36,495 nt of DNA. It comes from Perkinsus marinus ATCC 50983. Taxonomy: Eukaryota; Perkinsozoa; Perkinsida; Perkinsidae. Position 1 is the stretch's first letter. Every line of letters starts with the position of its first letter. Positions 257 to 23,324 of this stretch are shown here, piece after piece. Position numbers and translations under genes: made by a program. Where the stretch lies: NCBI RefSeq assembly GCF_000006405.1, contig NW_003201482.1, forward strand, positions 20,874-57,368. Direction: 5' to 3'. The notes beneath the pieces are model-generated. The model was not told where the DNA came from and ran no database searches. It saw only the letters and a list, made by a program, of their open reading frames with translations.

Positions 257-2562
257 ATGACTCTCCATCTCTCCTTCATTGGCTGCTTGCTCTTCGCGGT
301 CCCCGGCGCGGCTAAACTAAGACGCCTTCAAGTCTCTACCACTGACGCTCCCACCTACAGTCCTGGAGCTCGACAGCGTTGTGATCTTTACTGCCAAAGT
401 AAGGTTGCTCTTTGGAGACTCACTGCTTTCTGATGTTCCTCGTCTGTAGTTCAGAACGGGTCGCCGAGCTATTGCAAGTATTGGTTATCTCCTCCAGTCT
501 GCCAGGCGGGGGATCAGCCTTGCTCGCCTGACGTGTGTGATGGTAGGACCATTGCTGCATTCTACTGTCCTGAATGTTTCTCTCAGTTCCACCTGAAGCT
601 ACTGTACCGTCCTTGTCCACACCACCGTCGACTGACTCGGAAACCTGCGACCGTTATTGTCAAAGCTTGAATGGCCCTGCGAGTTACTGTAAATGGTGGC
701 AGTCGCCTGCTGTTTGTCAATTCGGTGACCAGTTCTGTGGTGATGTGACTACGTGTGATCCGACCGCTCCGACTACATCATCAACGTCCTCGATCACTTC
801 TTCGACCGGCTTCACGACAAGCACTCCGATCGTTCCTACTACCACGCCTGTGGCTCCTACTACAACACCGATCGTTCCTACTACAACGCCTGTGGCTCCT
901 ACTACAACACCGATCGTTCCTACTACAACGCCTGTGGCTCCTACTACAACACCGATCGTTCCTACTACAACGCCTGTGGCTCCTACTACAACACCGATCG
1001 TTCCTACTACCACGCCTGTGGCTCCTACTACAACACCGATCGTTCCTACTACCACGCCTGTGGCTCCTACTACAACACCGATCGTTCCTACTACCACGCC
1101 TGTGGCTCCTACTACAACACCGATCGTTCCTACTACAACACCGATCGTTCCTACTACCACGCCGATCGTTCCTACTACAACGCGTGTAGCTCCTACTACC
1201 ACGCCTGTGGCTCCTACTACCACGCCTGTGGCTCCTACCACAACACCGATCGTTCCTACTACCACGCCGATCGTTCCTACTACTACGCCTGTGGCTCCTA
1301 CTACCACGCCTGTGGCTCCTACCACAACGTCTGCGGCTCCTACTACTACGCCTGTGGCTCCTACTACTACACCGATTGTTCCCACTAGTACGCCTGTGGC
1401 TCCTACTACAACACCGATCGTTCCTACTACCACGCCTGTGGCTCCTACTACTACACCGATTGTTCCCACTAGTACGCCTGTGGCTCCTACTACCACGCCT
1501 GTGGCTCCTACTACTACGCCTGTGGCTCCTACTACTACGCCTGTGGCTCCAACTACTACACCGATCGTTCCTACTACAACGCCTGTGGCTCCTACTACAA
1601 CGCCTGTGGCTCCTACTACAACACCGATCGTTCCTACTACCACGCCGATCGTTCCTACTACCACGCCGATCGTTTCTACTACAACGCCTGTGTCTCCTAC
1701 TACAACACCGATCGTTTCTACTACCACCCCTGTGGCTCCTACCACTACGCCTGTGGCTCCTACTACTACACCGATTGTTCCTACTACCACGCCTGTGGCT
1801 CCTACTACAACACCGATCGTTCCTACTACAACGGCTGTGGCTCCTACTACAACACCGATCGTTCCTACTACAACACCGATCGTTCCTACTACAACGCCAG
1901 TGGCTCCTACTACCACGCCTGTGGCTCCTACTACCACGCCTGTGGCTCCAACTACCACGCCGATCGTTCCAACGGCCACGCCTGTGGCTCTGACGACGAC
2001 GATTCCTACTACAACACTCTCGGGGCCCATCTTTGGGAGCGATGGAGATGTTACCACTCAAGCTGGCGAGTGCGACTCTTACTGTTTCTTACTCAACGGT
2101 GTGGGGAGCTACTGCAAGTCTTGGCTCAGTCCTCCCGTATGCCAACTTGGTAACCAACCTTGCACTGCAGCCGATTGCGCTGTATCAACTACATCGATAT
2201 CGAATCCGGCAACAACGACTGAGGGCATCCTGTTCGGAGGAGATGCCGATTCTACCACTGTTGAGGAAACGACCACTGCCACCGCGGGGGTATCGACCAC
2301 ATCTGATGCTGGTCAAAGTATTACCTCGACAAGTGGCCCTCAGACTTCGACGATTGCCATGACAACGGGTGCTAGTGTTGCGTCATCAACTGGCGAAGTG
2401 CCTACCATCTGGTCTCCGATGACAGGACCGGATGCTGTTTGTGATCGCAACTGTATTTTGATCAATGATGATTCATCCTCGTATTGCAAGTACTGGTTGT
2501 CTCCTCCTGTCTGCCAAGGAGGGAACCAGTTATGTGATTGCGAGGCTGCTAGACTTCGTTAA
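257..2562 (+). CDS. G1: secreted mucin-like protein with four six-cysteine modules and a long Thr/Pro heptad array
   Basis: Predicted exons are 257-398, 450-542 and 587-2562, with GT-AG introns of 51 and 44 bp, both phase 1; the product is 736 residues. The start was chosen because it begins a hydrophobic signal peptide aligned with the paralogues; an in-frame ATG at 215 is the alternative. R-R-L-Q follows at residues 22-25. Module 1 spans exons 1 and 2. Exon 3 has module 2 near its start, then about 55 heptads of TTTPVAP/TTTPIVP type, then modules 3 and 4. Module 4 is degenerate at its end (C-D-C-E). The Thr/Pro array should be heavily O-glycosylated, as in mucins. There is no C-terminal hydrophobic segment, so the protein is probably released or bound to a wall. 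The function is unknown; adhesion, wall or host-interaction roles are guesses. Confidence 0.8.
823..1990 (+). repeat. 21-nt in-frame tandem repeat array (Thr/Pro heptads) in G1
   Basis: About 55 copies of a 21-nt unit encode T-T-T-P-[V/I]-[A/V]-P. In the 5' half, PVA and PIV heptads alternate strictly, so the real unit there is 42 nt (14 residues). Further 3' the order becomes irregular. Variants such as SAAP, TRVAP, TSTP and IVST mark older copies. No copy breaks the frame, which fits selection on the protein. The array also leaves a long open frame on the opposite strand, which is a composition artefact. Confidence 0.95.
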
Positions 2563-3122
2563 TTTGGCGAGTCTAAATTTGAGGTGTGTGGACCGCCTCA
2601 TTCGTATATCTTTAGGTGGGTACCTCATCTTCATTCACGATTCATCATAGTAATACTGAGTAGTTCTCGCCCATGGTTTGCTTAGCGACACGTATTCACA
2701 TGCATCCTCTCAAAAGGCAGGCTCCTTGTGTTCATTACCAGGGAAAGTCGCTCCACGGCGTTCGAGTGCGCCTCTTAGCCGAGACTAGACAATTGATAGA
2801 ATTGAAGAAACAATTGGCTGTTGCAGGAGTAATGGAGGAAACGTCGATGCTTGGAGTCTCCAAGTTGGGGAATTCGGGAGTTTACGTTCGAATGAGACGA
2901 GCCTTTTCTGACGATTTTTGAAGAGGGTGTGAAAACAGACGTAAATATGTGGAGAAAGAATTGATCACCACGACAAGACATTGGAGGCTCAAGACGAGGA
3001 TCGTGTGATGGGTCATTGGGTGTAGAAGTGGAATACACAGGACTCTGAATCCTGTACAATCGGTATAATTGATTTTCTTGCTATAATTGTTTTGGGGATT
3101 CGCAGCCGGAAGATTTTACTGA
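2563..3122. other. Intergenic, no supported gene
   Basis: This is the 3' flank of G1. An open frame at 2673-2921 (+) would encode a basic peptide with no recognised motif, signal peptide or match to the array family. I do not support it as a gene. No repeat or RNA was seen. Confidence 0.4.
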
Positions 3123-3170
3123 TTAGCCCGCCCGGCACGGCAAGATATTTGTGGAGTGTATCTTGGTTGG
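3123..3170 (+). promoter_or_regulatory. Orphan copy of the AAGATA-N11-TATCTT upstream element
   Basis: The sequence TTAGCCCGCCC, then ACGGC, then AAGATA-N11-TATCTT (inverted repeat at 3142-3164) closely matches the element upstream of G3 (5950-5997) and more loosely those of G5 and G7. No array gene begins within 1.1 kb downstream. It is probably a relic of a lost or relocated gene of the family, or a distal element of G2 (start 4355). Similarity is seen directly; the function is inferred. Confidence 0.45.
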
Positions 3171-3320
3171 GTTGTCCGTGAAAACAGTGAATCCTGGAAA
3201 TGGTGAACCGGAATAAATTTCCCGCGAACCCTGATAACGGTGAAGGAGCTAGCGCGCGCCACGAGTGCGCGCCAACAGAAGTTCATGCCGAGATCCCCTT
3301 ACGTCATATGTGTTGTAATC

Positions 3321-3387
3321 GACCGGTTGGTGTAGTGGTTAGGCGTTGTAGTTAGTTACCGACTGTTCAAGGTACAAATCGTGTGAT
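3321..3387 (+). repeat. tRNA-like Pol III promoter sequence, possible SINE head or tRNA relic
   Basis: The stretch GGTTGGTGTAGTGGTTAG closely resembles a tRNA D-arm/A box. About 30 bp further on, GGTACAAATC resembles a B box (GGTTCRANNC) with one or two mismatches. The spacing suits a tRNA-derived element. The flanking bases do not form a good acceptor stem, so this is not an intact tRNA. No second copy was found in the window. Confidence 0.35.
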
Positions 3388-4354
3388 CATCATGGTAATT
3401 TTGTAATTGAGACGCGGTTCAACCAGACCAGCTCAAACCAGTAAGCTTGCCTAACTCAGCTGGCACGCCTCCTTAGCAGTTACTCCGGGTCCACGAGCTG
3501 TAATACAATGCTATCCAGGAGCTCAGTATAGAGGTTGTATTTGTTCATGCTCAAGAGGAACAGGCATTAGGATCTGTTTCCTCATGCATTGCTGTTTATC
3601 CTTGTGGTACTGCCAGAATTGTTCATCAACAAGGTTCCCATACTTCTTCTATAGTCACTACTTTGGACTCAAACGCTTTGCTTATGGCAATCGCGTATCT
3701 CAGCTAGTTGGTTACGGATTGAGAACTCACTCCCTCGTTTTGGAAGATCCATTATGGAACAGTGGAACAGAAGACAAAATATTTGATCAAAACACGGATT
3801 TCCGAATCCCGAAGCCCGAAGAAAGAGCACCATTCAGTACTTCGGAAGTGCTACTTCCTATCCACAACCATGGCATAGTGAAACTCGAAAGCTATTACTA
3901 GACCGTTCGTGTTGCTCCTACTTTTGAAAAGTCGCTTCAAGACACGCAACGAAGAACCAGGCCTGAAAAAGATGACAATCTGTATAATATGTGCTCCGAC
4001 CCTCAGTGGTCCGTAGCGCTGCGGTTGCTCGAGCAAGCTGACTACTCAAACATTAAATCGGAGACGGATCATTGAAAGTTGAATTGGTTCGGGAAGGAGT
4101 GGTAGAAAAATTACTGATATTAAGGATACTGGTGCGGGCGAGTTTGTTGTTCACTATCGTCAGGCTTTCACCCGCTTTAGTGGGAGAAAAAGTCCCTTCA
4201 ACGGATTCACTCGCCCTTCACCTTTCCCAGGATTCACTGTTTCCAGGCGGGACCTCTTGGTTGCTAGATGCTGTCAGTGTCGTGAGTTATGGACTGACAT
4301 CAACGCTGTGAGAACTCACCTTATTTCTTCAGCTTGATTCACCTTACCTTCATT
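3388..4354. other. Intergenic, no supported gene
   Basis: Open frames at 3584-3901 and 4072-4311 (+) lack recognisable motifs. Their codons show no link to the array genes. It may be old transposon or gene debris; nothing specific can be said. Confidence 0.35.
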
Positions 4355-5084
4355 ATGGTACTCCCATGCGTCGCCTTTATCTTATCCATATGTTTGTTTT
4401 CTCATGGCTCTAGTCGTATGAGGAGGGCTCAAAGCGCATCCTCTTCTACCCCGCCATCCACAACGCCCGAGAATCGCCAAGTATGCGATTATTACTGTCA
4501 GAGTGAGGCAGCTTCTGTCTTGAGAAGTTTGGATCCACTTGGTTTCTCAAGATCTCAACGGCCCATCGAGCTATTGCAAGTACTGGCAGTCTCCTCCTGT
4601 TTGCCAAGTAGGGAACCAACCGTGCTCGGTTGACGTTTGCGAAGGTGAACTCCATGTGCGCAGTACTGTCGTGTATTTTATATCTTCCTCAGTTCCCGAT
4701 GGTACGAGTACTGCCTTCGGTTCAACGACTACTACGATAGTTTCAACAACCCCTACTGCAACCTCAATGGCTCCGACTAGTGCAATAGCATCTACAACTC
4801 CTCCCATCCCCTCAACAACTCCTATGGGCCCTTCAACTACTCAGACGCCTGTGACTACTACAACGTCGCCGCCTGTTACGACCGCAACATCAGTGGCTTC
4901 AACCAGTTTCCCACCGAGTTCTACGACCCTGCGGGTTATTCCCAGAGCAACTCCGGTGGTTCCCAGAGGACCGCCTGTGAATCCCGGCCCACCGTCGCCA
5001 ATTCCTAAGGCAACGCCGGTGATTCCTAGCGTCAGACCTGATATTCCGGCAGCGCCACCTGTTAACCCTCCTGGACTGCGTTGA
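4355..5084 (+). CDS. G2: short secreted protein, one six-cysteine module plus Thr/Pro tail
   Basis: Predicted exons are 4355-4502, 4552-4644 and 4693-5084, with phase-1 GT-AG introns of 49 and 48 bp; the product is 210 residues. A signal peptide starts at MVLPCVAF, with R-R-A-Q at residues 23-26. The single module spans exons 1 and 2 (CDYYC to SVDVC). Exon 3 is all linker: a Ser/Thr/Pro stretch, then proline-rich heptad-like repeats of the IP-x-ATPV kind, ending in NPPGLR. That tail is shared with G4 and G6, so G2 is a short relative that lacks their second module. It is secreted with no membrane anchor. Function unknown. Confidence 0.75.
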
Positions 5085-5997: not shown

Positions 5998-6102
5998 GAA
6001 AGTCGATTATCGGATACATGTGGACTCCTTGTCTTTCCATATATGAAGGTCGATCTATCGTAGCCTGGATTCTTGCAGCTTTCCAAACTCATGTTCCACA
6101 TC

Positions 6103-8263
6103 ATGGTTCTTCGCGTCGCTGCAGTCTTGTTCGTGACTAGTATTTCGCAGGGCTCCAGTGACCTGAGGAGACTACAGACCTTACCCTCCAGTACCCCGCC
6201 TATTTCCAGCACTACCCCTGAAAATCGCCAAGTATGCGACTACTACTGCCAATGTGAGGCCACTTTGGTTCCGATCGATTGATTTGTACATCGCTGTTCT
6301 GTCAGATCTCAATGGTCCTTCGAGCTACTGCAAATACTGGCAATCTCCTCGTGTCTGCCAAGGTGGAGATCAGCCGTGCTCCATCGATGTTTGTGATGGT
6401 AGGGCCGATCTGTGAGCTGGTATGGAATGCATTGTTTCAGTTCCCGATGGTGCTACTATTGCCCCTATTCCAACGCCTTCTCCTGTTGATGCCGAAGCAT
6501 GTGATCAATACTGTATGCTTCTCAATGGTCCATCAAGTTATTGTAAGTATTGGCAGTCCCCTTCGGTCTGCCTGTACGGCGACCAGCCTTGTGATGACGT
6601 GAGCACCTGTCAAGCCCCTATCGTCGGTTTTACGACCTTCGACTTGGACGGAGATCAGCACGTCGGTCCTTCAGCTGCATGCGATCTGTACTGCCAAGGG
6701 TTGAACGATGACGAGAGCTACTGCAAACACTGGCAGAATCCTGCAGTTTGTCATTCTGGCGACCAACCATGTGGACCAACTGTATGCGATCCCATTGATA
6801 CGACCGCAGTCGTCTCGACCACTGCAGTGTCCACTGCCCCGGCCTCATCCAGCCCGACGACGACTCTTGTCACGACACTGGCTCCGACTACTACAACTGC
6901 TGTTGTCACTACTACTTCCGCTGGTACCTCCGTATCTCCGACGACTGTTTCTGCCATCTTTGGTGGGGACTCGGATCCAACGACTCCCGAGTCAAGCGAG
7001 TGTGACCTCTACTGCAGGTCTCTGAACGGAGACGATAGTTATTGCAAGTCCTGGCTGAGTCCTCCTGTATGCCATAAGGGTGATCAGCGATGTGATCCAT
7101 CTACCTGCATTGTGGAGACCCCCGAGCCAATCTTTGGTGGAGATGCGGAGACAACTACCGCTACCTCTACAACGGATGACAATGCCGCGTGCGATCATTA
7201 TTGTAAACTTCTCAATGGTGAGGCTAGCTATTGCAAGCAATGGCAAACTCCTGCCGTTTGCCTCTATGGCGATCAGCCCTGTGATGACGCCAACATATGT
7301 AGATCACCAATAGAAGGCATCACCACTGCCGACTTGGATGGTGACAATCATACCGGTGAATCTTCCGCCTGTGACGCATATTGCAAGGGCCTGAACGGTG
7401 TCACAAGTTACTGTAAGTACTGGCAGCATCCTGCCGTTTGTCTTGATGGTGATCAGCCTTGCGGACCCTCTGTTTGTGATCCCTCATCGACGACTTCCAG
7501 CCTCACTTCAGAGCCAGTCTCTACTACGACTTCAACCGAAGCGACTACTCCCACGACTACAACAGTTCTGACTTCAGCCACGACCACAGTCGCTACCACA
7601 GTTAGCTCTACTACGGGCAGCGACTCTGCCACCATTTCTACAACTCCAGGGGACCCTCTGTTTGGTGGGGACGCTGATACATCAACATCTCCGGCGGTCG
7701 ATGAAGGTTACGTTTGTGATCGCTATTGCCAGCTGCTGAATGGTCCGGAGAGTTACTGCAAGTTCTGGCAGTCTCCTGCCGTTTGTCAATATGGAGACCA
7801 GCCATGTGGTGATGTTACAACATGCTCGTCGCCAATCATTGGCACTTCAACTTATGACTTGGTTGGTGATCAACACGACGGTTCTTCATCGGCCTGCGAC
7901 TCATACTGCCAAGGGCTGAACGACGACTCGAGCTATTGCAAATACTGGCAGAATCCCGCAGTTTGTCTTGGCGGTGACCAACCTTGTGGTCCGTCAATAT
8001 GCGATCCTACAACTTCGACTGCCTCGGCCTCCACTTCATCGACTCCGCCTTCATCCGTATCTTCTACTACGCCGGGGACTTCTCAATCGGTGGCCACCAC
8101 GTCACTCGTCTTCGGAGGTGACTCAGATTCGAGCACCGAGGTCTCTAATGGGTGCGACACCTACTGTAAGGCTCTGAACGATGAGTCCAGTTACTGCAAG
8201 TACTGGTTGGATCCTCCAGTCTGCCAAAGTGGAGATCAGGTGTGTGACCCCTCTGTTTGCTGA
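6103..8263 (+). CDS. G3: secreted nine-module cysteine-rich, mucin-like protein
   Basis: Predicted exons are 6103-6253, 6306-6398 and 6441-8263, with phase-1 GT-AG introns of 52 and 42 bp; the product is 688 residues. The start at MVLRVAA aligns with G2; ATG at 6091 is the alternative. After the signal peptide comes R-R-L-Q (22-25). Six-cysteine modules lie near residues 45-80, 102-138, 162-197, 269-304, 332-368, 392-427, 507-543, 567-602 and 653-688. Three pairs (2-3, 5-6, 7-8) are joined by a short linker containing DL-[D/V]-GD-[Q/N]-H. Pairs and singles are separated by Thr/Ser-rich stretches ending in FGGD-[S/A]-[D/E]. The chain ends on the last module cysteine, so it has no anchor. Exons 2-3 are almost identical to G5 and G7, but exon 1 and intron 1 are clearly different. 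Confidence 0.85.
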
Positions 8264-9481
8264 ACATAGCAGAACAGCGACGTATATTCCTTCCCGTCTC
8301 CGATAGCATTCCATTCAACGTATTCGATATATCCTCTCAGCATGTTGCTGATTTTTTGCACGTATAAATGCTACCGTATTACACTATAAAAACTCTACTC
8401 CATTAGATGTATCCCCACAGATCATTTTGTATATCTCATCTCAGTGTTCGTGATTCATGGAATCATTGACCAGAACCACCATGTTGAGTTTGAGATTCTG
8501 AAACGACCTGAGACGCCAGGAGAATACTAGTTTACCGAAAAAGTTCTCGTGATTGTCGATAGACGTTGAGCATCATTAAACTCTAGCTACTAGAGCACAT
8601 GCCAAGAGTGTGTTAGTGACCGATTACTATACATTCTTTTCAGCGTTGCAGTCAGTAATGATTATAGAATATTGAGTAGTATCATCGTTGTCACGCGTAT
8701 GGGTAATGAACTATCATCTATCACCTAGATATCGACATCAACCCAACCATGATGGTGTGAGGCTGGCTTACACAGGGAATATGTTTACAAACGCGCTCAG
8801 ACTATTTGGTTCGCTGTCGACTGACCCAAGCTTATCATCGACACTGTTTCGTCGGCTTGTCAGAACATCAATATGAATTCGAGTGTCCAGCGGCAGACGG
8901 TTTTCTCTTGGGGAGTCTGCTTCGTGATATTTCAGGCGCGTGACAGGGCTGTCACTGTATGGATGTCGGTTCGACGAGAGAGCGGAAAGTGTACAAGAGT
9001 TTGCCAAGATATCCAAAATTTGGATTCCAAATGGAGTTTCTAGGGTGGAATGTGGATATCTCAATCAGGTCACATGAACATTCCGCACAGATCCCTGCTA
9101 ATAGTGAATGAGAATGCTAAGATGATCAGTAAGTGAAATTTGTGACATCCTATCAGGAGTAGCCTCCTCATGATTATATTAAGTATCAACCACTGATGAG
9201 GTGTGAGTGGTGAACACACAGGTTGATATCTCTCATGGAATCTCCACTCATCTGCAAGGATTCGCGATACTCTCGCTCGCCTTCGGTTACGATAGCCAAC
9301 TGAGCCGTCCATGTATCAATCCAGTCCATCTTTGGCCTGCAGGAGGTCTCAGAACCATCTGGGCCATGGTTTCTGTCAGATTGTCTTCCGATCTATTCAT
9401 GATTCATCGCCTATCCCTAGCCGTCAGCACGCTCCTCTTGGCCACTGGTGACGCAGGTCTCAGAAGACTCCAGTTTTCGAC
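8264..9481 (+). repeat. Duplicated intergenic segment, copy A (G3 3' flank to G4 exon 1)
   Basis: This stretch aligns along its length with 16127-17472 after G5, for example around the GTATATCTCATCTCAG and TATCAACCACTGATGAGG motifs. It contains no gene other than the 5' end of G4. The first 300 bp also recur after G7 (21474-21770), so the 3' flank exists in three copies. Confidence 0.8.
9246..9281 (+). promoter_or_regulatory. 36-bp conserved block upstream of G4
   Basis: Same block as 72-107 (G1) and 17222-17257 (G6), ending CTCTCGCTCGCC, 118 bp before the G4 ATG. Conservation with G6 is expected from recent duplication; conservation with distant G1 is the informative part. Confidence 0.4.
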
Positions 9482-12065
9482 CGGTGTAATACAATCCGGC
9501 AATCGCAACTTTTTGCTAATATTGCGGATTTGCCGAATGCTATAATTTCTGACAGTCTCACTTTTTTGCTCTTTTGTATGTGCTGCTTCCTCAGTTACAA
9601 AGTAGCAACCACATTTACAACCGGGCAATTTCTGGTATAGGTTTTAGCAACCCAATGTTGAAAGTAGCAAATCCAAAAGTGTTTTCCAGCAAGTCGCTCT
9701 TTTTTGCTCTTTTTTTGCTGCATTGTATATTTCCTCGGAATGTTTTACACGCTGGCACTTTTGCCCAAGTGGGCTTCGCCCGCACGTTTTCGTTATTCTG
9801 GCAAGTTGTACTCATTTGCTGTTTGATATGTTTTGCGTTGTAATTACATGGTCTGGCATATTTCAAGGTTTGCCCTTGTGTGATGTTCCTGCATGAAATA
9901 TACAAATCGGCAGTTGCCGGTATGTGACAACGCTGCGCTACTTTTATGTTTCGGCTATTTGCTCTCTTGTAACTTACGCCCTGCGAGAATATATACTAGC
10001 GTTTTGCTCACTCGCTCAAACTCCGTCTCTGTTAGCGTTATTAGCAAACTTGTTATTTTGCATTATTCGTACGAGCAATATACAATCGAGCAAACATAGT
10101 TATGGGATAGCGTTTCTCGTTCGATTACGGTATTACGCCTTATATCTTACGCTCCAGAACATGCTCATGCCCTGTGCACTTACTAAGTATCTTATCTATC
10201 AAAGGTGTCACACTTTGTGTCTCACTTAAAGCGAGTCACTTAGTATCGGGTCCAAGCGTGATAGCACTCTAGTGAGATATATCATTCACTCCCAAGTCAG
10301 CGCGAGTTATGATCAATGCTGAATACCAAAAACATGATTACTCTTGCACGTCGCGATTAAATAAGATGAGATAACAGTTAAATTGAGTCCCATCTACGAG
10401 TATCCTCTCTCTTGTTGTATCGTATCAGTTGTGTCTCATGGTTTGGTACGATTGTACGTATTGACGACTCAACAATACCCACAAGTTGAACCCTTGAGTA
10501 GGCATTAGGTAAGTATTACGGGCAATTTTGACATTGTGGCACTTATCGGAGTGCCTCTAAGGAGCTATTATTATGGACTGTGCAGAGATGTAGAAGAATT
10601 GTACAGGGGAAACGCAACATGGACAGAATTACTAGATATGAACTCTACAGCCCTTCGCACACAATATTCACTCCCGGGCTCCACTAGAGTTACTATGAGG
10701 GGTTGCATAAGAAGCATATTGAGGAACGTGCAAATTTTTCTCTACCAATCACCGAGACAGTTACTTATAGCAACTACAACAGCTGAGCACCACTGAGGTG
10801 CCTACCTTACTGCGAGTGCGTACATGGTCGCTAGTCTCCAGTGATGGGAGAAACTTCTTCGATTCCTCACGCTCGTCCTCTTTCGACCGCTTGTGCTGCA
10901 ATTCTTTTGCCGCGTGGCTCTCGTACTCCTCCACCAATAAAATAACATTGGTGTTAGACGAGTACTTTCGCACTATCTCCTCACATCTGGTACCTCGGGA
11001 GAACTTGTTCAGCGCCGGGTAGATGCGGAGTGCTAACTTAGCACTGCTAAGCCAGCCTGCCTCTTTCCTCGATAATTTCGATGTTCGCGAGGGGCATCTT
11101 TCTGCAATGACCAGTATTTGCTCAGACCACCGAAGAGCATAATAGGCCACGTAAGGATCAGGATGCGTGTATGAAAGTCACGACATCTCGCATGGGCACC
11201 ACTGGGGTGCCTGCAATACAGCACTACACTGCAGATGAGTGATCCACGTTGATCCAAATGAGTGATCTCGGATCACTCAGTACGAGTGATTCCGCCCAAT
11301 ACGAACTACCACGTAAACACAAATCCTCTCCCTCGTTGTTCTGTGACCATGTGCGAACTGCAATGATGTGGAAAATATGAAAATCCAACGAACCCTTAAC
11401 GAACCTAAGTCTTTACTAACGAGTCGTTAGTAACGACCTACTACCACCTACAATAGTCCATCCATCATTCTCCCAGTGCTGCAACTATACTTATCTATAT
11501 CGACAGAACCAAAGAACTTTGCAAAATAGCCACCACTCAGAGACTTCGAAACTATAATGCAATGCTCAACACAATCACCAATGACCCACCATTGGTGGGC
11601 CACCAAGGTTAGAATCTCGCGTGCGAAATTTCAATTTCTTCTTCCGATTGTAGAACAGCAAAAATTTGCTCCATTGCGGGGTTGTCCATTCGTAAAGCGG
11701 CAAATTGCTACTCTGAAAAGTAGCAATTTGCTCAATAGTAGAAGGAGCAATTTATCGGGTTGCCCCTTCTTTGAGCAAAATTGCTCAATTTTGTCACATA
11801 GTAGCACTTCACATAGCGGCAGCTTTTATATATTCTAGCAATTTTCTGAAATATAAACAAGCAAACGATATTCATTCGAGCAGTTTCTGTTATACAAAAT
11901 GGCAAATTTGCGTTTTTGTGAAGCGAATTTTGCTACTTTGCTCTTCTGTATATCAGCCATAGCATTTTTACACACTAGCACAACAGCAAAAGCCGCAGGA
12001 AATATACATTCCAGCTAATTAGCACTTTTTTGCTATTTGCTCCTTTGCTATTTTGTAACTGAGCC
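9482..12065. mobile_element. 2.58-kb non-autonomous DNA transposon-like insertion, Mutator-like by target duplication
   Basis: The element is bounded by direct copies of GTTTTCGAC at 9473-9481 and 12066-12074. G6 has a single such site (17464-17472) with no insert, so the ends are defined by comparison. The two ends share an inverted pattern: TACAA-N4-GCAA near the left end, and the reverse complement of TTGCTATTTTGTAACTGAG (12045-12063) at the right. A nearly exact inverse partner of the latter lies at 9590-9608. Both terminal 450-600 bp are packed with AGCAA/TTGCT motifs, typical of subterminal transposase-binding repeats. The interior has a - strand open frame (10761-11150) and a + strand one (10536-10796), neither recognised as transposase. 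Nine-bp target duplications are typical of Mutator-like elements; this class assignment is tentative. Confidence 0.75.
10761..11150 (-). CDS. Unrecognised open frame inside the 2.58-kb element
   Basis: A 129-codon frame with a Lys/Glu/Arg-rich centre (KRSKEDEREESKK) that could form a helix. It resembles no transposase I know, and has no zinc finger or visible catalytic DDE pattern. It could be a captured host-gene fragment or a chance frame. Its position within the element is the only context. Confidence 0.2.
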   Translation of the reverse strand: MAYYALRWSEQILVIAERCPSRTSKLSRKEAGWLSSAKLALRIYPALNKFSRGTRCEEIVRKYSSNTNVILLVEEYESHAAKELQHKRSKEDEREESKKFLPSLETSDHVRTRSKVGTSVVLSCCSCYK

Positions 12066-12528
12066 GTTTTCGACTACAACCTCTTCACCGACTACTGACC
12101 TGGATGACCGTGAGCGTTGTAACCTCTATTGCAAAAGTGAGGTTGAAGTCCGTCTATTACGGCTCTCAACTTGAGATCTCCGGTTCTCCATTTCAGTTGA
12201 AAACGGGGCCGCAAGCTACTGCAAACATTGGCTGACCCACCCAGTGTGCATGACAGGGAATCAACCTTGCTCGGCAGATGTTTGTGATGGTAACGTGCGA
12301 AATGTGGAGTCTTGTGGTCCCATTATGATATGTAGCTAACCGTTCCTCCTCAGTTCGACCTGGTGCTACGATTCCACCTCGACCTACGCCCCCCAAGGAA
12401 ACTGCCGATGCCTGTGATCGGTACTGTCAAGATCTCAATAATCCCGCAAGTTATTGCAAGTGGTGGCGGACTCCACCAGTATGCCACTTGGGTAATCAGT
12501 TCTGTGGCAGTCTAGCTGTATGCGAACC

Positions 12529-12660
12529 TACGACTACAACTACGACTACAACTACGACTACGACTACGACTACGACTACGACTACAACTACAACTACAAC
12601 TACAACTACAACTACAACTACAACTACGACTACGACTACGATAACAAGTACGACAACTAC
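12529..12660 (+). repeat. Thr-codon microsatellite (ACN)n in G4 exon 3
   Basis: A run of alternating ACG, ACA and ACT codons encodes over 30 consecutive Thr, following module 2. The matching tract in G6 (about 17925-17960) has only about a dozen Thr codons, so it has expanded or shrunk since duplication. Threonine tracts of this kind fit an O-glycosylated spacer. Confidence 0.9.
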
Positions 12661-12946
12661 TTCTACAACTACTACTGCGTCTGCTCTCACAACCACTACG
12701 ACTCAGCCTACATCAACCTTTGTTTTCACGCCATCTTCAGCAACTCCTACAACTACTGAAACCATGACAACTACATCCGTAATCCCTACCAGTTCGCCCA
12801 CGACTTCAACACCGCGTGTTATCCCCAGTGCAACGCCAGTTATTCCCAGCGCAACGCCAGTTATCCCTAGCGCCACGCCTGACATCCCTAGTGCAACACC
12901 CAATATCCCTGCATCGCCATCTGTCAACCCTCCTGGGTTGCGGTAA

Positions 12947-13800
12947 CCGTTTGGTAGTTCAAGTTAGTTGTTTACGGTGGCGATGCGCATATCTGAGGAA
13001 GATGCTTCACTTCTCGTTCTTCGCCAACCTAAGACCATTTTTTTGCATGTCAGATTCGTAAACCGATTCAAACCCGTAGTCTTTCATTCAATCCCAGTTG
13101 GTGTCGTGTTTGTAGTGTTATTCACAATAAATACCCTCGAGACGAACACATTCCGAAAAACGGTGACATGGATACTTCTGAGTGCACTAACTGTGTTGAG
13201 TTCATCAGTGCCATAGCGCCCCTATGGGTTGCTGATTTCCGCAAGTGTTGGATGGGACGCGGGAATTCGCATAATAAGGTGATCCGCAACGGCTCCACTA
13301 CGATAAAGTTTATATGACTGAGTCATGTAGCTTTAATCGTTACCTAAGTCACTGAACGTGTCGCTACCCTTGAATGTGTTCTACTCGAGTCCTGAACGTC
13401 ATTCAATACTCTGTAACATGTAGACGCTCCCGAATGGCGGTGTCGAACCCGCGACGCGTTTGAGTAGTACAGGTTTCTAGTGTTTGTCCTTGACCCGATA
13501 TATGAAGCGCACATAACTTGCTACACGTTAGTAACTCGCGGCGTGTAACTATTGTTGCTTCGTCGGTTAGTATTGAGTAACGACGTTCTCTCACTGGTAT
13601 GGGAACCACCTCACAGACACACTGAGATATTCTCAGTGCATTCTCAGTGAGAATGCATCTGCAGACTATAGCGAAGACAGCCGACAGGCGGTTCTGTAGA
13701 CAGGCGATTCTGGAATTGATTCTGAGCATCGAAATCGATTTATTGAACGACCCCACTGGAGCGAGCTCATACGTGTCCCGCACCGGCAAGATTCCAGCGT
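12947..13800. other. Duplicated intergenic segment between G4 and G5
   Basis: This stretch aligns with 18324-19150 between G6 and G7 at high identity. The main difference is an extra piece near 13621-13656 that carries an 8-bp inverted repeat (GCATTCTC and GAGAATGC around AGT). The - strand open frame at 13403-13855 is broken in the other copy and is not supported. Confidence 0.6.
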
Positions 13801-13848
13801 TGAGCTCGCCTGGAACGGGAAGATACTCGGAGAACGAATCTTGACTGC
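13801..13848 (+). promoter_or_regulatory. Conserved upstream element of G5
   Basis: TGAGCTCGCC, then AACGGG, AAGATA, 11 nt and AATCTT (inverted repeat 13820-13842, one arm mismatch), then GACTGCG. It lies 130 bp before the G5 ATG. It matches the elements of G3 and G7 and the orphan at 3123. Confidence 0.5.
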
Positions 13849-13971
13849 GACGCAATCGTGTAATACACGCTAATGAGCTTAAATGAACTTCCTAATTTAA
13901 GCCACGAAGATTCCCGGTCCGTCGTTTTCATACTATTCCGTTTTCAGCCTGTTCCGGCCAGCACTCACCCT

Positions 13972-16126
13972 ATGCTCGTCCGCCTTGCTATAGTCTTGCC
14001 TGTACTGGGCTTCTCACAGGACTCTGGTGATCGGAGGAGAATTCAAGGCTTAACTTCAACTACACCACCAGATTCTACCACTCCCGAGAATCGCCAAGTA
14101 TGCGACTACTATTGCCAATGTAAGCCAGGCATCTAAATTTAACACCAACTCCACTCTTTTATCAGATCTCAACGGTCCTTCGAGCTACTGCAAATACTGG
14201 CAATCTCCTCGTGTCTGCCAAGGTGGAGATCAGCCGTGCTCCATCGATGTTTGTGATGGTAAAGCCGATCTGTGAGCTGATATGAAATACACTTCTTCAG
14301 TTCCCGATGGTGCTACTATTGCCCCTATTCCAACGCCTTCTCCTGTTGATGCCGAAGCATGTGATCGATACTGCATGCTTCTTAATGGTCCATCAAGTTA
14401 TTGTAAGTATTGGCAGTCCCCTTCGGTCTGCCTGTACGGCGACCAGCCTTGTGATGACGTGAGCACCTGTCAAGCCCCTATCGTCGGTTTTACGACCTTC
14501 GACTTGGACGGGGATCAGCACGTCGGTCCTTCAGCTGCATGCGATCTGTACTGCCAAGGATTGAACGATGACGAGAGCTACTGCAAACACTGGCAGAATC
14601 CTGCAGTTTGTCATTCTGGCGATCAACCATGTGGACCAACTGTGTGCGATCCCACTGATACGACCGCAGTCGTCTCGACCACTGCAGTGTCCACTGCCTC
14701 GGCCTCATCCAGCCCGACGACGACTCTTGTCACGACATTGGCTCCGACTACCACAACTGCTGTTGTCACTACTACTTCCGCTGGTACCTCCTTATCTCCG
14801 ACGACTGTTTCTCCCATCTTCGGTGGGGACTCAGATCCAACGACTCCCGAGTCAAGCGAGTGTGACCTCTACTGCAGGTCTCTGAATGGAGACAATAGTT
14901 ATTGCAAGTCCTGGTTGAGTCCTCCTGTATGCCAAAAGGGTGATCAGCGATGTGATCCATCTACCTGCATTGTGGAGACCACCGAGCCTATCTTCGGTGG
15001 AGATGCGGAGACAACTACCGCTACCTCTACAACTGATGACAATGCGGCATGCGATCATTATTGTAAACTTCTCAATGGTGAGGCTAGCTATTGCAAACAT
15101 TGGCAAACTCCTGCCGTTTGCATCTACGGCGATCAGCCCTGTGATGACGCTAACGTATGTAGATCGCCAATAGAAGGAGTCACCACTGCCGACTTGGATG
15201 GTGACAATCATACCGGTGAGTCTTCCGCCTGCGACGCATATTGCAAGGGCCTGAACGGTGTCACGAGTTATTGTAAGTACTGGCAGCATCCTGCTGTTTG
15301 TCTTGATGGTGATCAGCCTTGCGGACCTTCTGTTTGTGATCTATCAACGACGACATCCAGCCTCGCTTCAGAAGCAGTCTCTACTACGACTTCACCCGAG
15401 GAGACTACTATTCCTACGACTACAGCCGCTCCGACTTCAGCCACGACCACAGTCGCTACCGCAGTTAGCTCTACTACGGGCAGCGACTCTGCCATCACCA
15501 CCACGACTGCAGGAGGCCCATTGTTTGGTGGGGACGCTGATACATCGACATCTCCGGTGGTCGATGAAGGTTACGTTTGTGATTACTATTGCCAGCTGCT
15601 GAATGGTCCGGAGAGTTACTGCAAGTTCTGGCAGTCTCCTGCCGTTTGTCAATATGGAGACCAGCCATGTGGTGATGTTACAACATGCTCGTCGCCAATC
15701 ATTGGCACTTCAACTTATGACTTGGTTGGTGATCAACACGGCGGCTCTTCATCAGCCTGCGACTCATACTGCCAAGGGCTGAACGGCGACTCTAGCTATT
15801 GCAAATACTGGCAGAATCCCGCAGTTTGTCTTGGTGGTGACCAACCTTGTGGTCCGTCAATATGCGATCCTACAACTTCGACTGTCCCGGACTCCACTTC
15901 GTCGACTCCGCCTTCATCCGTATCGACCACTACGTCGGGAACTTCTCAGTCGGGGGCCACCACGTCACTCGTCTTCGGAGGCGACTCAGATTCGACCACC
16001 GAGGCCTCCAATGGGTGCGACACCTACTGTAAGGCTCTGAACGATGAATCCAGTTACTGCAAGTACTGGTTGGATCCTCCAGTCTGCCAAAGTGGAGATC
16101 AGGTGTGTGACCCTTCTGTTTGTTGA
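13972..16126 (+). CDS. G5: secreted nine-module cysteine-rich, mucin-like protein
   Basis: Predicted exons are 13972-14119, 14166-14258 and 14301-16126, with phase-1 GT-AG introns of 46 and 42 bp; the product is 688 residues. The start is the ATG of MLVRLAIV, aligned with the paralogues; an upstream in-frame ATG at 13873 would add 33 residues and bury the signal peptide. R-R-R-I-Q sits at residues 21-25. It has nine six-cysteine modules in the same 1+2+1+2+2+1 layout as G3, with FGGD tags and DLDGD linkers. It differs from G3 by scattered substitutions, mostly in the Thr linkers, while module cysteines are all kept. Exon 1 is identical in protein to G7. Secreted, no anchor, function unknown. 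Confidence 0.85.
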
Positions 16127-16435
16127 ACATCAGATCGGCGACGTATATTTCTTTCCGTCTCGGATAGGATTCCATTCAACTTATTCGATATATCCTCTCA
16201 GCATGTTGCTGATTTTTTGCACGTATGAATGCTACCGTATCACTCTATAAGAACTCTACCTCAGATGTATCCCCACAGATCATTTTGTATATCTCATCTC
16301 AGAGTTCGTGATTCATAGAATCATCGACCAGGATCACCATGTTGAGTTTGAGATTCCAATACGACCTGAGGCGCGAGGAGAATAATATTTTACCGAGGGA
16401 GTTCTCGTGATCGTCGACAGACGTGGAGCATCATT

Positions 16436-16557
16436 GGAGTTTCACCCGTTTTACGTGAAGTGGCGTAAAACTCCGTGAAAAACGCGATATTTGCGACTTG
16501 CAATAGCCGTGAAATATGTTTTTCACTAGTGTTTTTCATATCACGGGGGAAAACTCC
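16436..16557. mobile_element. 122-bp MITE-like insertion downstream of G5
   Basis: The matching flank of G3 reads straight through CATCATTAAACTC at 8571-8583, while after G5 the ATT is duplicated (16433-16435 and 16558-16560) around 122 extra bp. The ends are inverted: GGAGTTTCACCCGT at the left, and the complement of ACGGGGGAAAACTCC at the right. It encodes no protein. A 3-bp target duplication with short terminal inverted repeats suits a PIF/Harbinger-derived MITE, but this assignment is tentative. Confidence 0.75.
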
Positions 16558-17221: not shown

Positions 17222-17257
17222 ACTCACCTGCAAGGATTCGCGATACTCTCGCTCGCC
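17222..17257 (+). promoter_or_regulatory. 36-bp conserved block upstream of G6
   Basis: The same block as upstream of G1 and G4, 133 bp before the G6 ATG, ending CTCTCGCTCGCC. Confidence 0.4.
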
Positions 17258-17389
17258 TCCGGTTACGATAGCCAACTACCGATCCTACCGAACTACCGGT
17301 ACCAATCCTATCCATCTTCGGCATGCAGCAGGTCTCAGAACCATCGAAACCTTACATTGGTTTCTGTCAGATTGTCTTCCGATCTATTC

Positions 17390-18323
17390 ATGATTCATCG
17401 TCTATCCCTAGCCGTCAGCACGCTCCTCTTGGCCACTGGTGACGCAGGTCTCAGAAGACTCCAGTTTTCAACTACAACCTCTTCGCCGACTACTGGCCTG
17501 GATGACCGTGAGCGTTGTAACCTCTATTGCAAAAGTGAGATTGAACTTCGTCTATTATGGCTCTCAACTTGAGATCTCCGGTTCTCCATTTCAGTTAAAA
17601 ACGGGGCCTCAAGCTACTGCAAACATTGGCTGACCCACCCAGTGTGCATGACAGGGAATCAACCATGCTCGGCGGATGTTTGTGATGGTAACGTGCTAAA
17701 TGTGGAGTGTTGTGGTCCCATTATGATATGTAGCTAACCGTTCCTCCTCAGTTCGACCTGGTGCTACGATTCCACCTCAACCTACGCCCCCCAAGGAGAC
17801 TGCCGATGCCTGTGATCGGTACTGTCAAGATCTCAATAATCCCGCAAGTTATTGCAAGTGGTGGCGGACTCCACCAGTATGCCACTTGGGTAATCAGTTC
17901 TGTGGCAGTCTAGCTGTATGCGAACCTACGACTACAACTACAACTACGACTACGACTACGATAAGAAGTACGACAACTACTTCTATAACCACTTCTACAA
18001 TTATTTCTACTACGTCTGCTCTCACAACTACTCCGACTCTGCCTACAACAACGTTAGTCTCTACGCCATCTTCGGCAACTCCTACAACTACTCAAACCGT
18101 GACAACTACATCCGTAATCCCTACCAGTTCATCCGCGACTTCAACACCGCGTGTTATCCCCAGTGCAACGCCAGTTATCCCCAGCGCAACGCCAGTTATC
18201 CCCAGCGCAACGCCAGTTATCCCCAGCGCAACGCCAGTTATCCCTAGCGCCACGCCTGACATCCCTAGTGCAACACCCAATATCCCTGCATCGCCATCTG
18301 TCAACCCTCCTGGGTTACGGTAA
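17390..18323 (+). CDS. G6: secreted two-module protein with Thr tract and heptad tail
   Basis: Predicted exons are 17390-17534, 17595-17687 and 17752-18323, with phase-1 GT-AG introns of 60 and 64 bp; the product is 269 residues. A signal peptide begins MIHRLSLAV, with R-R-L-Q at residues 22-25. Module 1 (CNLYC to SADVC) spans exons 1-2; module 2 (CDRYC to SLAVC, with W-W in place of the usual x-W) is in exon 3. A Thr-rich stretch follows, then SATPVIP heptads (four perfect copies against two in G4), and the NPPGLR end shared with G2 and G4. It is the intact twin of G4 and preserves the empty insertion site in exon 1. Secreted, no anchor, function unknown. Confidence 0.82.
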
Positions 18324-19150
18324 CCGTTTGATAGTTCCTAGTTAGTTGTTTACGGTGGCGATGCGCATATCTGAGGAAGATGCTTCACCTCTCGTTCATC
18401 GCCAACCTAAGACCATTTTTTTGCATGTCAGATTCGTAAATCGATTCAAACCCGTAGTCTTACATTCAATCCCAGTTGGTGTCGTGTTTGTAGTGTTATT
18501 CACAATAAATACCTCGAGACGAACACATTCCGAAAAACGGTGACATGGATACGTCTGAGTGCACTAACTGTGTTAAGTTCATCAATGCCATAGCGCCCCT
18601 ATGGGTTGCTGATTTCCGCAAGTGTTGGATGGGACGCGGGAATTCGAATAATAAGGTGATCCGCAACGTCTGCACTACGATAAAGTTTATATGACTGAGT
18701 TATGTAACTTTGATCGTTACCAAGGCCACTGAGCGTGTCGCTACTCGGATGTGTTCTACTCGAGTCCTGAACGTCAGTCAATAATCCGATACTCGTAGAC
18801 GCTCTCAAATGGCGGTGCCGAGCCCGCGACGCGTTTGAGTAGTACAGGTCTCGAGTGTTTGTCCTTGACTCGATATATGAATCGCACATAACTTGCTACA
18901 CGTTAGTAACTCGCGGCGTGCAACTATTATTGCTTCGTCGGTTAGTGTCGAGTAATGACCTTCTCTCACTAATATGGGAACCACCTCACAGACACACTGA
19001 GAATTCATCTGTAGACTAAAGCGAAGGCAGCCGACAGGCGGTTCTGTAGACAGGCAATCCTGGAAATGATTCTAAGTATTGAAATCGGTATATTGAACGA
19101 CCCCACTGGAGCGAGCTCATACGTGTCCCGCACCGGCAAGATTCCAGCGT
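18324..19150. other. Duplicated intergenic segment between G6 and G7
   Basis: Counterpart of 12947-13800. Open frames here are not conserved intact between the two copies, so none is supported as a gene. Confidence 0.6.
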
Positions 19151-19198
19151 TGAGCTCGCCTGGAACGGGAAGATACTCGGAGAACGAATCTTGACTGC
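19151..19198 (+). promoter_or_regulatory. Conserved upstream element of G7
   Basis: Identical in its core to the G5 element, with the inverted repeat at 19170-19192, 130 bp before the G7 ATG. Confidence 0.5.
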
Positions 19199-19321
19199 GA
19201 CGCAATCGTGTGATACACGCTAATGAGCTTAAATGAACTTCCTAATTTAAGCCACGAAGATTCCCGGTCCGTCGTTTTCATACTATTCCGTTTTCAGCCT
19301 GTTCCGGCCAGCACTCACCCT

Positions 19322-21473
19322 ATGCTCGTCCGCCTTGCTATAGTCTTGCCTGTACTGGGCTTCTCACAGGACTCTGGTGATCGGAGGAGAATTCAAGGCT
19401 TAACTTCAACTACACCACCAGATTCTACCACTCCCGAGAATCGCCAAGTATGCGACTACTATTGCCAGTGTAAGCCAGGCATCTAAATTTAACACCAACT
19501 CCACTCTTTTATCAGATCTCAACGGTCCTTCGAGCTACTGCAAATACTGGCAATCTCCTCGTGTCTGCCAAGGTGGAGATCAGCCGTGCTCCATCGATGT
19601 TTGTGATGGTAAGGCCGATCTGTGAGCTGGTATGAAATGCATTGTTCCAGTTCCCGACGGTGCTACTATTGCCCCTATTCCAACGCCTTCTCCTGTTGAT
19701 GCCGAAGCATGCGATCGATACTGTATGCTTCTTAATGGTCCATCAAGTTATTGTAAGTATTGGCAGTCCCCTCCGGTCTGCCTCTACGGCGACCAGCCCT
19801 GTGGTGACGTGAGCACCTGTCAAGCCCCTATCGTCGGTTTTACGACCTTCGACTTGGACGGGGATCAGCATGTCGGTCCTTCAGCTGCATGCGATCTGTA
19901 CTGCCAAGGATTGAACGATGACGAGAGCTACTGCAAACACTGGCAGAATCCTGCAGTTTGTCATTCTGGCGATCAACCATGTGGGCCAACTGTATGCGAT
20001 CCAATTGACACGACCGCAGTCTTCTCGACCACTGCAGTGTCCACTGCCCCGGTCTCGTCCAGCCCGACGACGACTCTTGTCACGACGCTGGCTCCGACTA
20101 CTACAACTGATGTTGTCACTACTCCTTCCGCTGGTACCTCTGTATCTCCGACGACTGTTTCTGCCATCTTTGGTGGGGACTCGGATCCAACGACTCCCGA
20201 GTCAAGCGAGTGTGACCTCTACTGCAAGTCTCTGAATGGAGACGATAGTTATTGCAAGTCCTGGCTGAGTCCTCCTGTATGCCAAAAGGGTAATCAACGA
20301 TGTGATCCATCTACCTGCATTGTGGAGACCACCGAGCCTATCTTTGGTGGAGATGCGGAGACAACTCCCGTTACCTCTACGACTGATGACAGTGCGGCGT
20401 GCGATCATTATTGTAAACTTCTCAATGGTGAGGCTAGCTATTGCAAACAATGGCAAACTCCTGCCGTCTGCCTCTATGGCGATCAGCCCTGTGATGACGC
20501 TAACGTATGTAGATCGCCAATAGAAGGAATCACCACTGCCGACTTGGATGGTGACAATCATACCGGTGAGTCTTCCGCCTGCGACGCATATTGTAAGGGC
20601 CTGAACGGTGTCACAAGTTATTGCAAGTACTGGCAGCATCCTGCCGTTTGTCTTGATGGTGATCAGCCTTGCGGACCTTCTGTTTGTGATCCCTCAACGA
20701 CGACTTCCAGCCTCACTTCAGAAGCAGTCTCTACTACGACTTCATCCGAGGCGACTACTCCCACGACTATAACAATTCCGACTCCAGCCACGACCACAGT
20801 CGCTACCGCAGTTAGTTCTACTACGGGCAGCGACTCTGCCATCACCACCACGACTGCAGGAGGCCCATTGTTTGGTGGGGACGCTGATACATCGACCTCT
20901 CCGGTGGTCGGTGAAGGTTACGTTTGTGATTACTATTGCCAGCTGCTGAATGGTCCGGAGAGTTACTGCAAGTTCTGGCAGTCTCCTGCCGTTTGTCAAT
21001 ATGGAGACCAGCCATGTGGTGATGTTACAACATGCTCCTCGCCAATCATTGGCACTTCAACTTATGACTTGGTTGGTGATCAACACGGCGGCTCTTCATC
21101 AGCCTGCGACTCGTACTGTCAAGGGCTGAACGGCGACTCTAGCTATTGCAAATACTGGCAGAATCCTGCAGTCTGTCTTGGTGGTGACCAACCTTGTGGT
21201 CCGTCAATATGCGATCCTACAACTTCGACTGCCCCGGACTCCACTTCGTCGACTCCGCCTTCATCCGTATCGTCTACAACGTCGGGGACTTCTCAGTCGG
21301 TGGCCACCACGTCACTCGTCTTCGGAGGCGACTCAGATTCGACCATCGAGGCCTCCAATGGGTGCGACACCTACTGTAAGGCTCTGAACGATGAATCCAG
21401 TTACTGCAAGTACTGGTTGGATCCTCCGGTCTGCCAAAGTGGAGATCAGGTGTGTGATCCCTCTGTTTGTTGA
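19322..21473 (+). CDS. G7: secreted nine-module cysteine-rich, mucin-like protein
   Basis: Predicted exons are 19322-19469, 19516-19608 and 19651-21473, with phase-1 GT-AG introns of 46 and 42 bp; the product is 687 residues. Start and signal peptide are as in G5 (MLVRLAIV; R-R-R-I-Q at 21-25). It has nine six-cysteine modules in the same layout as G3 and G5. Changes against G5 are few and lie mainly in the Thr/Ser linkers (for example VFSTT for VVSTT), with one codon lost. All module cysteines are conserved, so the copy seems functional. Secreted without anchor. Function unknown; a surface, wall or host-facing role is a guess from the mucin-like design. Confidence 0.85.
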
Positions 21474-23252: not shown

Positions 23253-23324
23253 ATGACGATCAGTAAGAGCGAAACAGGGACAGTCGTAATGATCAGAAAT
23301 GTGACGTACAGAATTGCCGTCAGT

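What the first reader, a model, noticed from the sequence alone, without database searches (positions are those of the whole stretch)
257..21473. Tandem array of seven genes for secreted proteins built from one six-cysteine module
The same module (C-D-x-Y-C, S-Y-C-K-x-W, P-x-V-C, G-x-Q-x-C, C) appears once in G2, twice in G4 and G6, four times in G1, and nine times in G3, G5 and G7, always with mucin-like Thr/Pro/Ser linkers. I do not recognise the module as a named domain. Invariant Trp and Tyr with conserved Gly-Asp-Gln suggest a ligand-binding fold, possibly for sugars. A clustered, expanding family of this design is typical of surface or host-facing proteins.
Basis: partly seen in the sequence, partly recalled or inferred. 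Interest (0 to 1): 0.82.

Follow-up and report, generated by a model that had tools for sequence, protein, structure and literature searches.

The report
Shared cysteine module of Perkinsus proteins
A small disulfide-rich building block, not matched in the domain libraries searched, is repeated in seven neighbouring genes of an oyster parasite and recurs across its genome, in places fixed by a flexible linker to secreted enzymes, so it is probably a shared docking or binding piece.

Summary
Seven three-exon genes (257-21473) encode secreted proteins with 4, 1, 9, 2, 9, 2 and 9 copies (36) of a six-cysteine module, CX3CX9CX8CX6CX4-5C. One correction: G4 is split in exon 1 by a 2,585-bp multicopy element.

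The module is not special to this cluster. Matches form 83 clusters on 44 contigs (alleles not separated). A shorter form (ending PCxC) is attached by Thr/Pro linkers to secreted enzymes: S1/P1 nucleases, an FAD-linked oxidase, a nucleotidase-like phosphoesterase. All 38 named database relatives are Perkinsus. No Pfam, NCBIfam or PDB match to the module is significant. AlphaFold gives a confident compact fold (pLDDT 94).

Modules are under purifying selection (dN/dS 0.07-0.09; linkers 0.32-0.41), against a diversifying antigen. Best reading: a Perkinsus-specific accessory binding module that works like CBM1 or a dockerin, tethering enzymes and multivalent mucin-like proteins to a fixed ligand, perhaps the parasite's own wall. 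Binding and ligand are not shown. PmMOE1, a GFP-tagged protein of the cell edge, is an indirect lead: its published guide RNA reads, in one frame, like a module ending.

The parts
257..2562 (+). G1: exons 257-398, 450-542, 587-2562; 736 aa; 4 modules (first split by intron 1; others at 646-738, 2071-2163, 2440-2535); long PTTTP(V/I)(A/V) linker; last module ends CDC
4355..5084 (+). G2: exons 4355-4502, 4552-4644, 4693-5084; 210 aa; 1 module (split by intron 1)
6091..8263 (+). G3: exons 6091-6253, 6306-6398, 6441-8263; 692 aa; 9 modules (first split; others start at 6500, 6680, 7001, 7190, 7370, 7715, 7895, 8153)
9399..12946 (+). G4: exon 1 in two pieces (head from 9399 to 9481, tail 12067-12136) separated by an insert; exon 2 12197-12289; exon 3 12354-12946; 2 modules. 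Interrupted gene; described only, not joined
9482..12066 (.). 2,585-bp insert in G4 exon 1, flanked by the 8-bp direct repeat TTTTCGAC; a 761-bp part near its right end (11300-12060) has 44 listed matches in the genome, itself and fragments included
13972..16126 (+). G5: exons 13972-14119, 14166-14258, 14301-16126; 688 aa; 9 modules
17390..18323 (+). G6: exons 17390-17534, 17595-17687, 17752-18323; 269 aa; 2 modules (first split; second at 17811-17903)
19322..21473 (+). G7: exons 19322-19469, 19516-19608, 19651-21473; 687 aa; 9 modules

Best explanation
The module is a Perkinsus-specific, disulfide-stabilised, non-catalytic binding (accessory) module of about 36 residues. In the window it is strung 1-9 times along Thr/Pro/Ser-rich arms, giving multivalent secreted proteins. 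Elsewhere in the genome one to three copies are attached through the same kind of linker to secreted enzymes and other globular domains. It most likely holds its cargo to one fixed, repetitive extracellular ligand, the likeliest being a component of the parasite's own wall or extracellular coat. Enzymes that feed on host nucleic acids or oxidise small molecules would thus act close to the cell, while the multi-module mucin-like proteins cross-link or coat that layer. Shown: the gene structures, the module and its forms, the genome-wide spread, three enzyme fusions, the selection regime, the predicted fold, and restriction of the named relatives found to Perkinsus. Inferred: that it binds, what it binds, and that it tethers.
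For: Enzyme plus Thr/Pro linker plus module: S1/P1 nuclease PF02265 (7.8e-52; 3.5e-54; 12 of 14 database hits carry PF02265, from P. marinus, P. olseni and P. chesapeaki, each of the 12 with one C-terminal module); FAD oxidase (FAD_binding_4 3.7e-21; BBE just under cut-off in that gene, just over it in a sister gene); nucleotidase-like NF006937 1.2e-8, far under its full-length cut-off. Genome spread: 146 YCKxWxxP codon-pattern sites against 1 in the reversed control; 83 clusters on 44 contigs. Purifying selection in modules, dN/dS 0.07-0.09 against 0.32-0.41 in linkers. Confident fold, pLDDT 94.0, pTM 0.73. Cys1 sits either 4 or 7 residues before Cys2, 73 and 19 of 92, never both, in or just before the predicted helix. 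No hydrophobic tail in the six uninterrupted window genes. Indirect: the PmMOE1 guide RNA (PMC8062965) reads PCKCGG in one of its two stop-free frames, like the short-form ending; a 2-mismatch site lies just downstream of a module half; [quoted passage not shown]
Against: No binding was measured and no ligand is known. The nuclease and nucleotidase cargo gives no reason to expect a sugar ligand. No localisation exists for any window gene. The PmMOE1 link is weak: its exact guide sequence is not in the held genome, the coding frame of the guide was not shown, and at the similar site the frame that holds the first module half reads PVNVVV, not a module ending; the module-like ending is in another frame, beside a stretch of Ns. 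Several cargo domains remain unidentified and one model was too poor to use.
Confidence: 0.52

Rival explanations
1. Host-facing lectin or adhesin: the module binds oyster or clam glycans or mucus, and the multi-module proteins are secreted adhesins or decoys.
For: Mucin-like secreted proteins in a parasite; multivalency; conserved aromatics (Tyr/Phe in 91 and Trp in 81 of 92 modules at two columns); tandem duplication.
Against: Modules are under strong purifying selection; the same module is on nucleases and a nucleotidase-like enzyme; no sequence match to a lectin family.
Confidence: 0.22
2. Protein-protein docking module, like the fungal dockerin: it binds a cognate receptor protein and assembles enzymes and scaffolds into complexes.
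For: One module on unrelated enzymes, in single or tandem copies, with a second class of multi-module proteins.
Against: No cognate receptor identified; no sequence match to dockerin/CBM_10 among the families listed.
Confidence: 0.15
3. Secreted defence peptide or protease inhibitor unit: a small disulfide-rich domain that is released from the linkers and acts alone.
For: Weak matches to Antimicrobial25 (2 of 19 modules, best 7.9e-4; 4 of 92, best 0.02) and to toxin-like knots (Toxin_30 0.01).
Against: All below curated cut-offs; most of the 92 modules match none of these families; modules are built into enzymes and long proteins.
Confidence: 0.06
4. Structural wall protein only: the modules cross-link through disulfides to build the wall, with no specific ligand.
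For: High cysteine and Thr/Pro content; no hydrophobic tail; a thick-walled life stage exists (PMC8792838, passages seen).
Against: Six cysteines per module and, by count, none elsewhere in the mature proteins, as for internal disulfides; fusion to soluble-type enzymes.
Confidence: 0.12

Closest known systems
Fungal cellulose-binding module CBM1 on secreted hydrolases (recalled)
   Same: Small disulfide-rich non-catalytic module of about 36 residues at one end of secreted enzymes, joined by a Thr/Ser/Pro linker, with conserved aromatics.
   Different: Different cysteine spacing (recalled); no Pfam match at E<=1 among 92 modules; cargo here includes nucleases; multi-copy mucin-like proteins without an enzyme.
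Anaerobic fungal dockerin (CBM_10, PF02013; recalled)
   Same: Short Cys-rich module, single or tandem, on unrelated secreted enzymes.
   Different: No sequence match; no scaffold or receptor known here.
PmMOE1 (Pmar_PMAR027036), the P. marinus transfection marker
   Same: Guide RNA reads PCKCGG in one frame, like the short-form ending; a related site in this genome lies next to a module half; GFP fusion at the cell periphery.
   Different: Its full sequence and the frame of the guide were not available here, so membership is a lead, not a test.
ADAMTS disintegrin-like region (2rjp, 3b2z; domain name recalled)
   Same: Top-ranked structural match; aligned over model residues 4-44.
[quoted passage not shown] marinus in PMC8062965
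   Same: The words describe proteins like these.
   Different: The passage gives no sequence and no identifiers for that family, so identity could not be checked.

Membership tests
CBM1 (fungal cellulose-binding) | Sequence match to the family profile | tested here: not met
   Not among the 13 families listed at E<=1 for 92 modules nor the 2 listed for 19 modules at E<=5
CBM1 (fungal cellulose-binding) | Small module joined by a Thr/Ser/Pro linker to a secreted enzyme | tested here: met
CBM1 (fungal cellulose-binding) | Binds cellulose | not testable with these tools
   No binding data
Fungal dockerin (CBM_10) | Sequence match to the family profile | tested here: not met
   Not among the families listed
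Fungal dockerin (CBM_10) | Same module on several unrelated enzymes | tested here: met
   S1/P1 nuclease, FAD oxidase, nucleotidase-like
Fungal dockerin (CBM_10) | Cognate scaffold receptor | not tested
   No candidate sought
Antimicrobial25 (PF16839) | Score over Pfam cut-off of 27 bits | tested here: not met
   12.1 bits for the one member whose score was shown; 4 of 92 members match weakly, best E 0.02; the whole exon-3 proteins of G1, G3 and G7 do not list it
ADAMTS disintegrin-like fold | Significant structural match | tested here: inconclusive
CS-alpha-beta toxin/defensin fold | Significant structural match | tested here: inconclusive
   Scorpion toxins at Foldseek E 4.6-7.7
PmMOE family | Contains the short-form module | tested here: inconclusive
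   One frame of a guide RNA and a 2-mismatch site only; the two module halves there are in different frames
Perkinsus module family (this report) | Match to the iterated module profile | tested here: met
   Window and fetched loci; 41 of 41 database hits have at least one module at domain E<1e-3

The most novel reading that the evidence does not exclude
Perkinsus independently evolved a genome-wide docking system: one 36-residue disulfide fold, in two or three forms, used as a common plug on many secreted enzymes and mucin-like multi-plug proteins, which together assemble an enzyme-bearing extracellular layer, comparable in logic to a cellulosome but built from an unrelated fold and holding nucleic-acid-scavenging and oxidising enzymes.
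Probability: 0.25. Interest if true: 0.8.

Novelty: new variant of a known kind. Interest (0 to 1): 0.6.

Why it matters
It gives a profile to a module that recurs in 83 clusters of one parasite genome and in three Perkinsus species, where most relatives are filed as hypothetical proteins. It links enzyme classes (nuclease, nucleotidase-like, FAD oxidase) to one shared piece, which makes a general question testable: how a parasite that feeds on dissolved matter keeps its secreted enzymes where they are useful. If PmMOE1 proves to carry it, it may also explain why that widely used marker labels the cell edge.

Tried and rejected
Known domain: Pfam and NCBIfam scans of whole proteins and of 19 and 92 single modules, and PDB sequence profiles gave no match over a cut-off to the module itself. 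Cornifin hits fall on the linkers. Weak hits to Antimicrobial25, DUF7772, Toxin_30 and GAD-like were set aside as below cut-off and not shared by most modules. Fold comparison gave nothing significant.

Outside Perkinsus: scans with the 19-module profile of bacterial/archaeal genomes (16 pattern sites, none a relative) and of viral contigs (7 sites, none) were empty. The protein searches see only relatives that share exact 5-residue words, and one search scored only the 7,987 candidates sharing most words, so distant homologues, for instance in dinoflagellates, are not excluded.

A giant protein (6,847-aa open frame on C49) was rejected: 4,759 of 10,000 fetched bases are N.

Unknown cargo: AlphaFold of the C-terminal domain of L050/L066/L067 from 3 sequences was poor (pLDDT 50.8) and was not used. 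The beta-propeller reading of L046/L049/L053 rests only on sub-threshold NHL/arylesterase hits to L053. The module in L063 is a weak match.

A count of the first cysteine's place (65/18/9 unplaced) used a faulty motif search; the column count (73/19) replaces it.

On re-checking, the frame of the PmMOE1 guide proved not to be shown, so I lowered the best explanation from 0.55 to 0.52.

Papers: ten searches showed no paper describing this module in their listings. I saw those listings, plus passages of PMC2868825, PMC8062965, PMC4858233, PMC9678886, PMC7200600, PMC8792838 and PMC4501334; no paper was read whole. A supplementary table of extracellular domains that includes P. marinus (PMC4501334, mentioned) was not seen. 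Fernandez Robledo 2008, the source of PmMOE, was not read.
Full report
WHERE IT IS. The window is contig C138:20874-57368 of a 54.5-Mb, 347-contig genome. Contigs C178, C201 and C233 have the lengths (156223, 695714, 1018260) given for the contigs of Perkinsus marinus ATCC 50983 proteins P0013/P0024, P0034 and P0025, and P0025 is 100% identical over the scored region to the C233 gene. So the genome is P. marinus ATCC 50983.

THE GENES. A strict pattern finds 29 intact modules in the window, all on the + strand, and 0 in 50 mononucleotide shuffles. Seven more are first modules split by an intron. Total 36: G1 4, G2 1, G3 9, G4 2, G5 9, G6 2, G7 9. All genes share one plan: exon 1 (signal-like peptide and the first two cysteines), exon 2 (rest of module 1), exon 3 (everything else). 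Introns are GT-AG, 42-64 nt. By count, every cysteine of the six uninterrupted genes outside the N-terminal hydrophobic stretch lies in a module, and none of the six has a hydrophobic C-terminus. No dedicated signal-peptide or GPI predictor was run.

ARRAY HISTORY. 12066-16378 and 17464-21740 (G4-G5, G6-G7) are 91.4% identical over 4,377 columns, and G3 matches G5 and G7 at 91-92%. G4 exon 1 is split by a 2,585-bp insert with 8-bp direct repeats; 761 bp near its right end have 44 listed matches in the genome at E<=0.001, itself and fragments included, so it is a multicopy mobile element.

SELECTION. Between G3-G5, G3-G7 and G5-G7, dN/dS in modules is 0.09, 0.07 and 0.07; in linkers 0.33, 0.32 and 0.41 (327 module codons, 360 linker codons, Nei-Gojobori counts). 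Modules are held fixed while linkers drift. Gene conversion between copies was not tested and could affect these values.

THE FAMILY. A codon pattern for YCKxWxxP has 146 exact sites in the genome and 1 in the reversed control. Hits at E<=1e-3 (126 used; 100 used) merge into 83 clusters on 44 contigs, 77 of them outside C138. One search did not list all matches, one search scored 150 of 220 candidates, and hits and hits above 1e-3 were left out of the merge, so this is a low count of places. On the other hand several clusters are near-identical (for example C233 and C265, C36 and C266) and may be alleles, so the number of distinct genes may be smaller. Iterated profile search over the fetched loci and the window gives 115 distinct modules. 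Of these, 92 were aligned; I left out the 7 intron-split copies and 16 others, mostly near-duplicates but also the divergent copies in L061 and L044:3372. Cysteines 2-6 are invariant in 92 of 92. Cysteine 1 is 4 residues before cysteine 2 in 73 and 7 residues before it in 19, never both. All 19 of the latter, and 18 of the former, have the short ending; 55 have the long ending. The last module of G1 has a short-type ending, so both endings occur in the window.

CARGO. Short-form modules are joined by Thr/Pro-rich linkers to other domains. (a) S1/P1 nuclease: PF02265 at 7.8e-52 (L054) and 3.5e-54 (L059), two proteins tested; partial C-terminal stretches of the same kind are read in L059 and L060. 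In the database 12 of 14 hits to the short form carry PF02265, from P. marinus, P. olseni and P. chesapeaki, each with one module at the C-terminus. (b) FAD-linked oxidase on C188, two modules: FAD_binding_4 at 3.7e-21 (L068), with BBE at 8.9e-4, just under its cut-off, in the continuing frame (L045 minus strand), and 3.4e-4, just over it, in the neighbouring gene. (c) Nucleotidase-like phosphoesterase on C124: NF006937 at 1.2e-8, far below its full-length cut-off; Pfam 5_nucleotid_C and Metallophos sub-threshold. (d) Possible beta-propeller (L046, L049, L053), an unidentified C-terminal domain (L050, L066, L067) and another in L063: no match over a cut-off. Other module proteins show no cargo in what was fetched, like the window genes.

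RELATIVES. Three protein searches returned 41 distinct proteins. 38 are named and all 38 are Perkinsus (marinus, olseni, chesapeaki); 3 (P0006, P0032, P0041) come from unnamed assemblies. All 41 hold at least one module. Most names are 'hypothetical'; source names such as 'Cell wall integrity and stress response component 3 precursor, putative' (P0007) were not tested. Bacterial/archaeal and viral scans found none.

FOLD. AlphaFold2 on 92 modules: pLDDT 94.0, pTM 0.73, helix 4-14, short strands, helix 38-41. In the modelled sequence cysteines 1 and 2 (residues 6 and 10) are on that helix; the alternative place of cysteine 1 (residue 3) is just before it. Foldseek and VIA find nothing significant.

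A WEAK LEAD TO THE CELL SURFACE. PmMOE1 is the gene used for P. marinus transfection. [quoted passage not shown] The guide RNA printed in PMC8062965 has two stop-free frames on its strand; one reads PCKCGG, like the short-form ending PCxCG, the other PVNVVV. Which is coding was not shown. The guide is not in the held genome exactly. One site with 2 mismatches exists, none in the control; by my own arithmetic for random sequence about 0.2 would be expected. It lies downstream of DAFCRKRTGNPGSYCK, which scores 16.7 bits with the module profile, and reads CQGTHISCKCGG in another frame, which scores only 1.7 bits; the frame of the first half reads PVNVVV there, and Ns lie just upstream. This is suggestive, not proof.

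READING. A module that is conserved, lineage-restricted as far as searched, too small to be an enzyme, and shared by unrelated secreted enzymes and multivalent mucin-like proteins is best explained as an accessory binding module. The wall or coat of the parasite is the likeliest ligand because one ligand must suit nuclease, oxidase and mucin-like proteins alike, because the modules do not diversify, and, weakly, because of the PmMOE1 lead. Host binding and protein docking remain open. Ligand, tethering and localisation of the window proteins are inferred.

WHAT IS NEW. I found no match to the module in the libraries and no description in the listings of ten paper searches of the held library (given under Tried and rejected). 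The kind of thing, a small accessory module on linkers, is known from CBM1 and dockerins (recalled); this module family and its cargo I did not find described.

Noticed in passing
9482-12066: A 2,585-bp multicopy element with 8-bp direct repeats splits exon 1 of G4; 44 listed matches for 761 bp of it, itself and fragments included.
   Followed up: partly
N-termini of G1-G3, G5-G7 (e.g. residues 22-25 of G1): A motif R-x-[L/A/V/I]-Q follows the signal-like peptide in 17 of 28 long-form proteins that I picked for having an N-terminus, always at residues 17-26 and nowhere else in those 17; it is absent from residues 11-50 of 12 of 12 nuclease-module proteins, one of which lacks its N-terminus. 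Its RRL core recalls the PEXEL/TEXEL processing sites (recalled); untested.
   Followed up: partly
G3/G5/G7 linkers between modules 2-3, 5-6, 7-8: Conserved acidic linkers (TxDLxGDxH, and FGGDxD before other modules) look like possible calcium-binding loops.
   Followed up: no
L051 (C25) and C230: Repeated small proteins in 143-150-aa open frames with a related cysteine-rich pattern; only weak matches to the module (E 0.04-0.15).
   Followed up: no
L040 (C333), P0006, P0028, P0029, P0044: A variant module in which the first cysteine is replaced by Trp (W-D-x-Y-C...) occurs beside normal modules.
   Followed up: no
19322-21473 (G7): The named P. marinus protein P0001 (Pmar_PMAR012010), very like G7, is listed on a contig of 175,004 bases, while C138 has 140,509; allele or different contig version, not resolved.
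   Followed up: no
25304-26113, - strand: Protein kinase exons (Pkinase 2e-23 over cut-off, and 6.5e-6 under it) to the right of the array.
   Followed up: partly
22494-23324, - strand: Open frame with a sub-threshold PB1-like stretch (0.0019).
   Followed up: no
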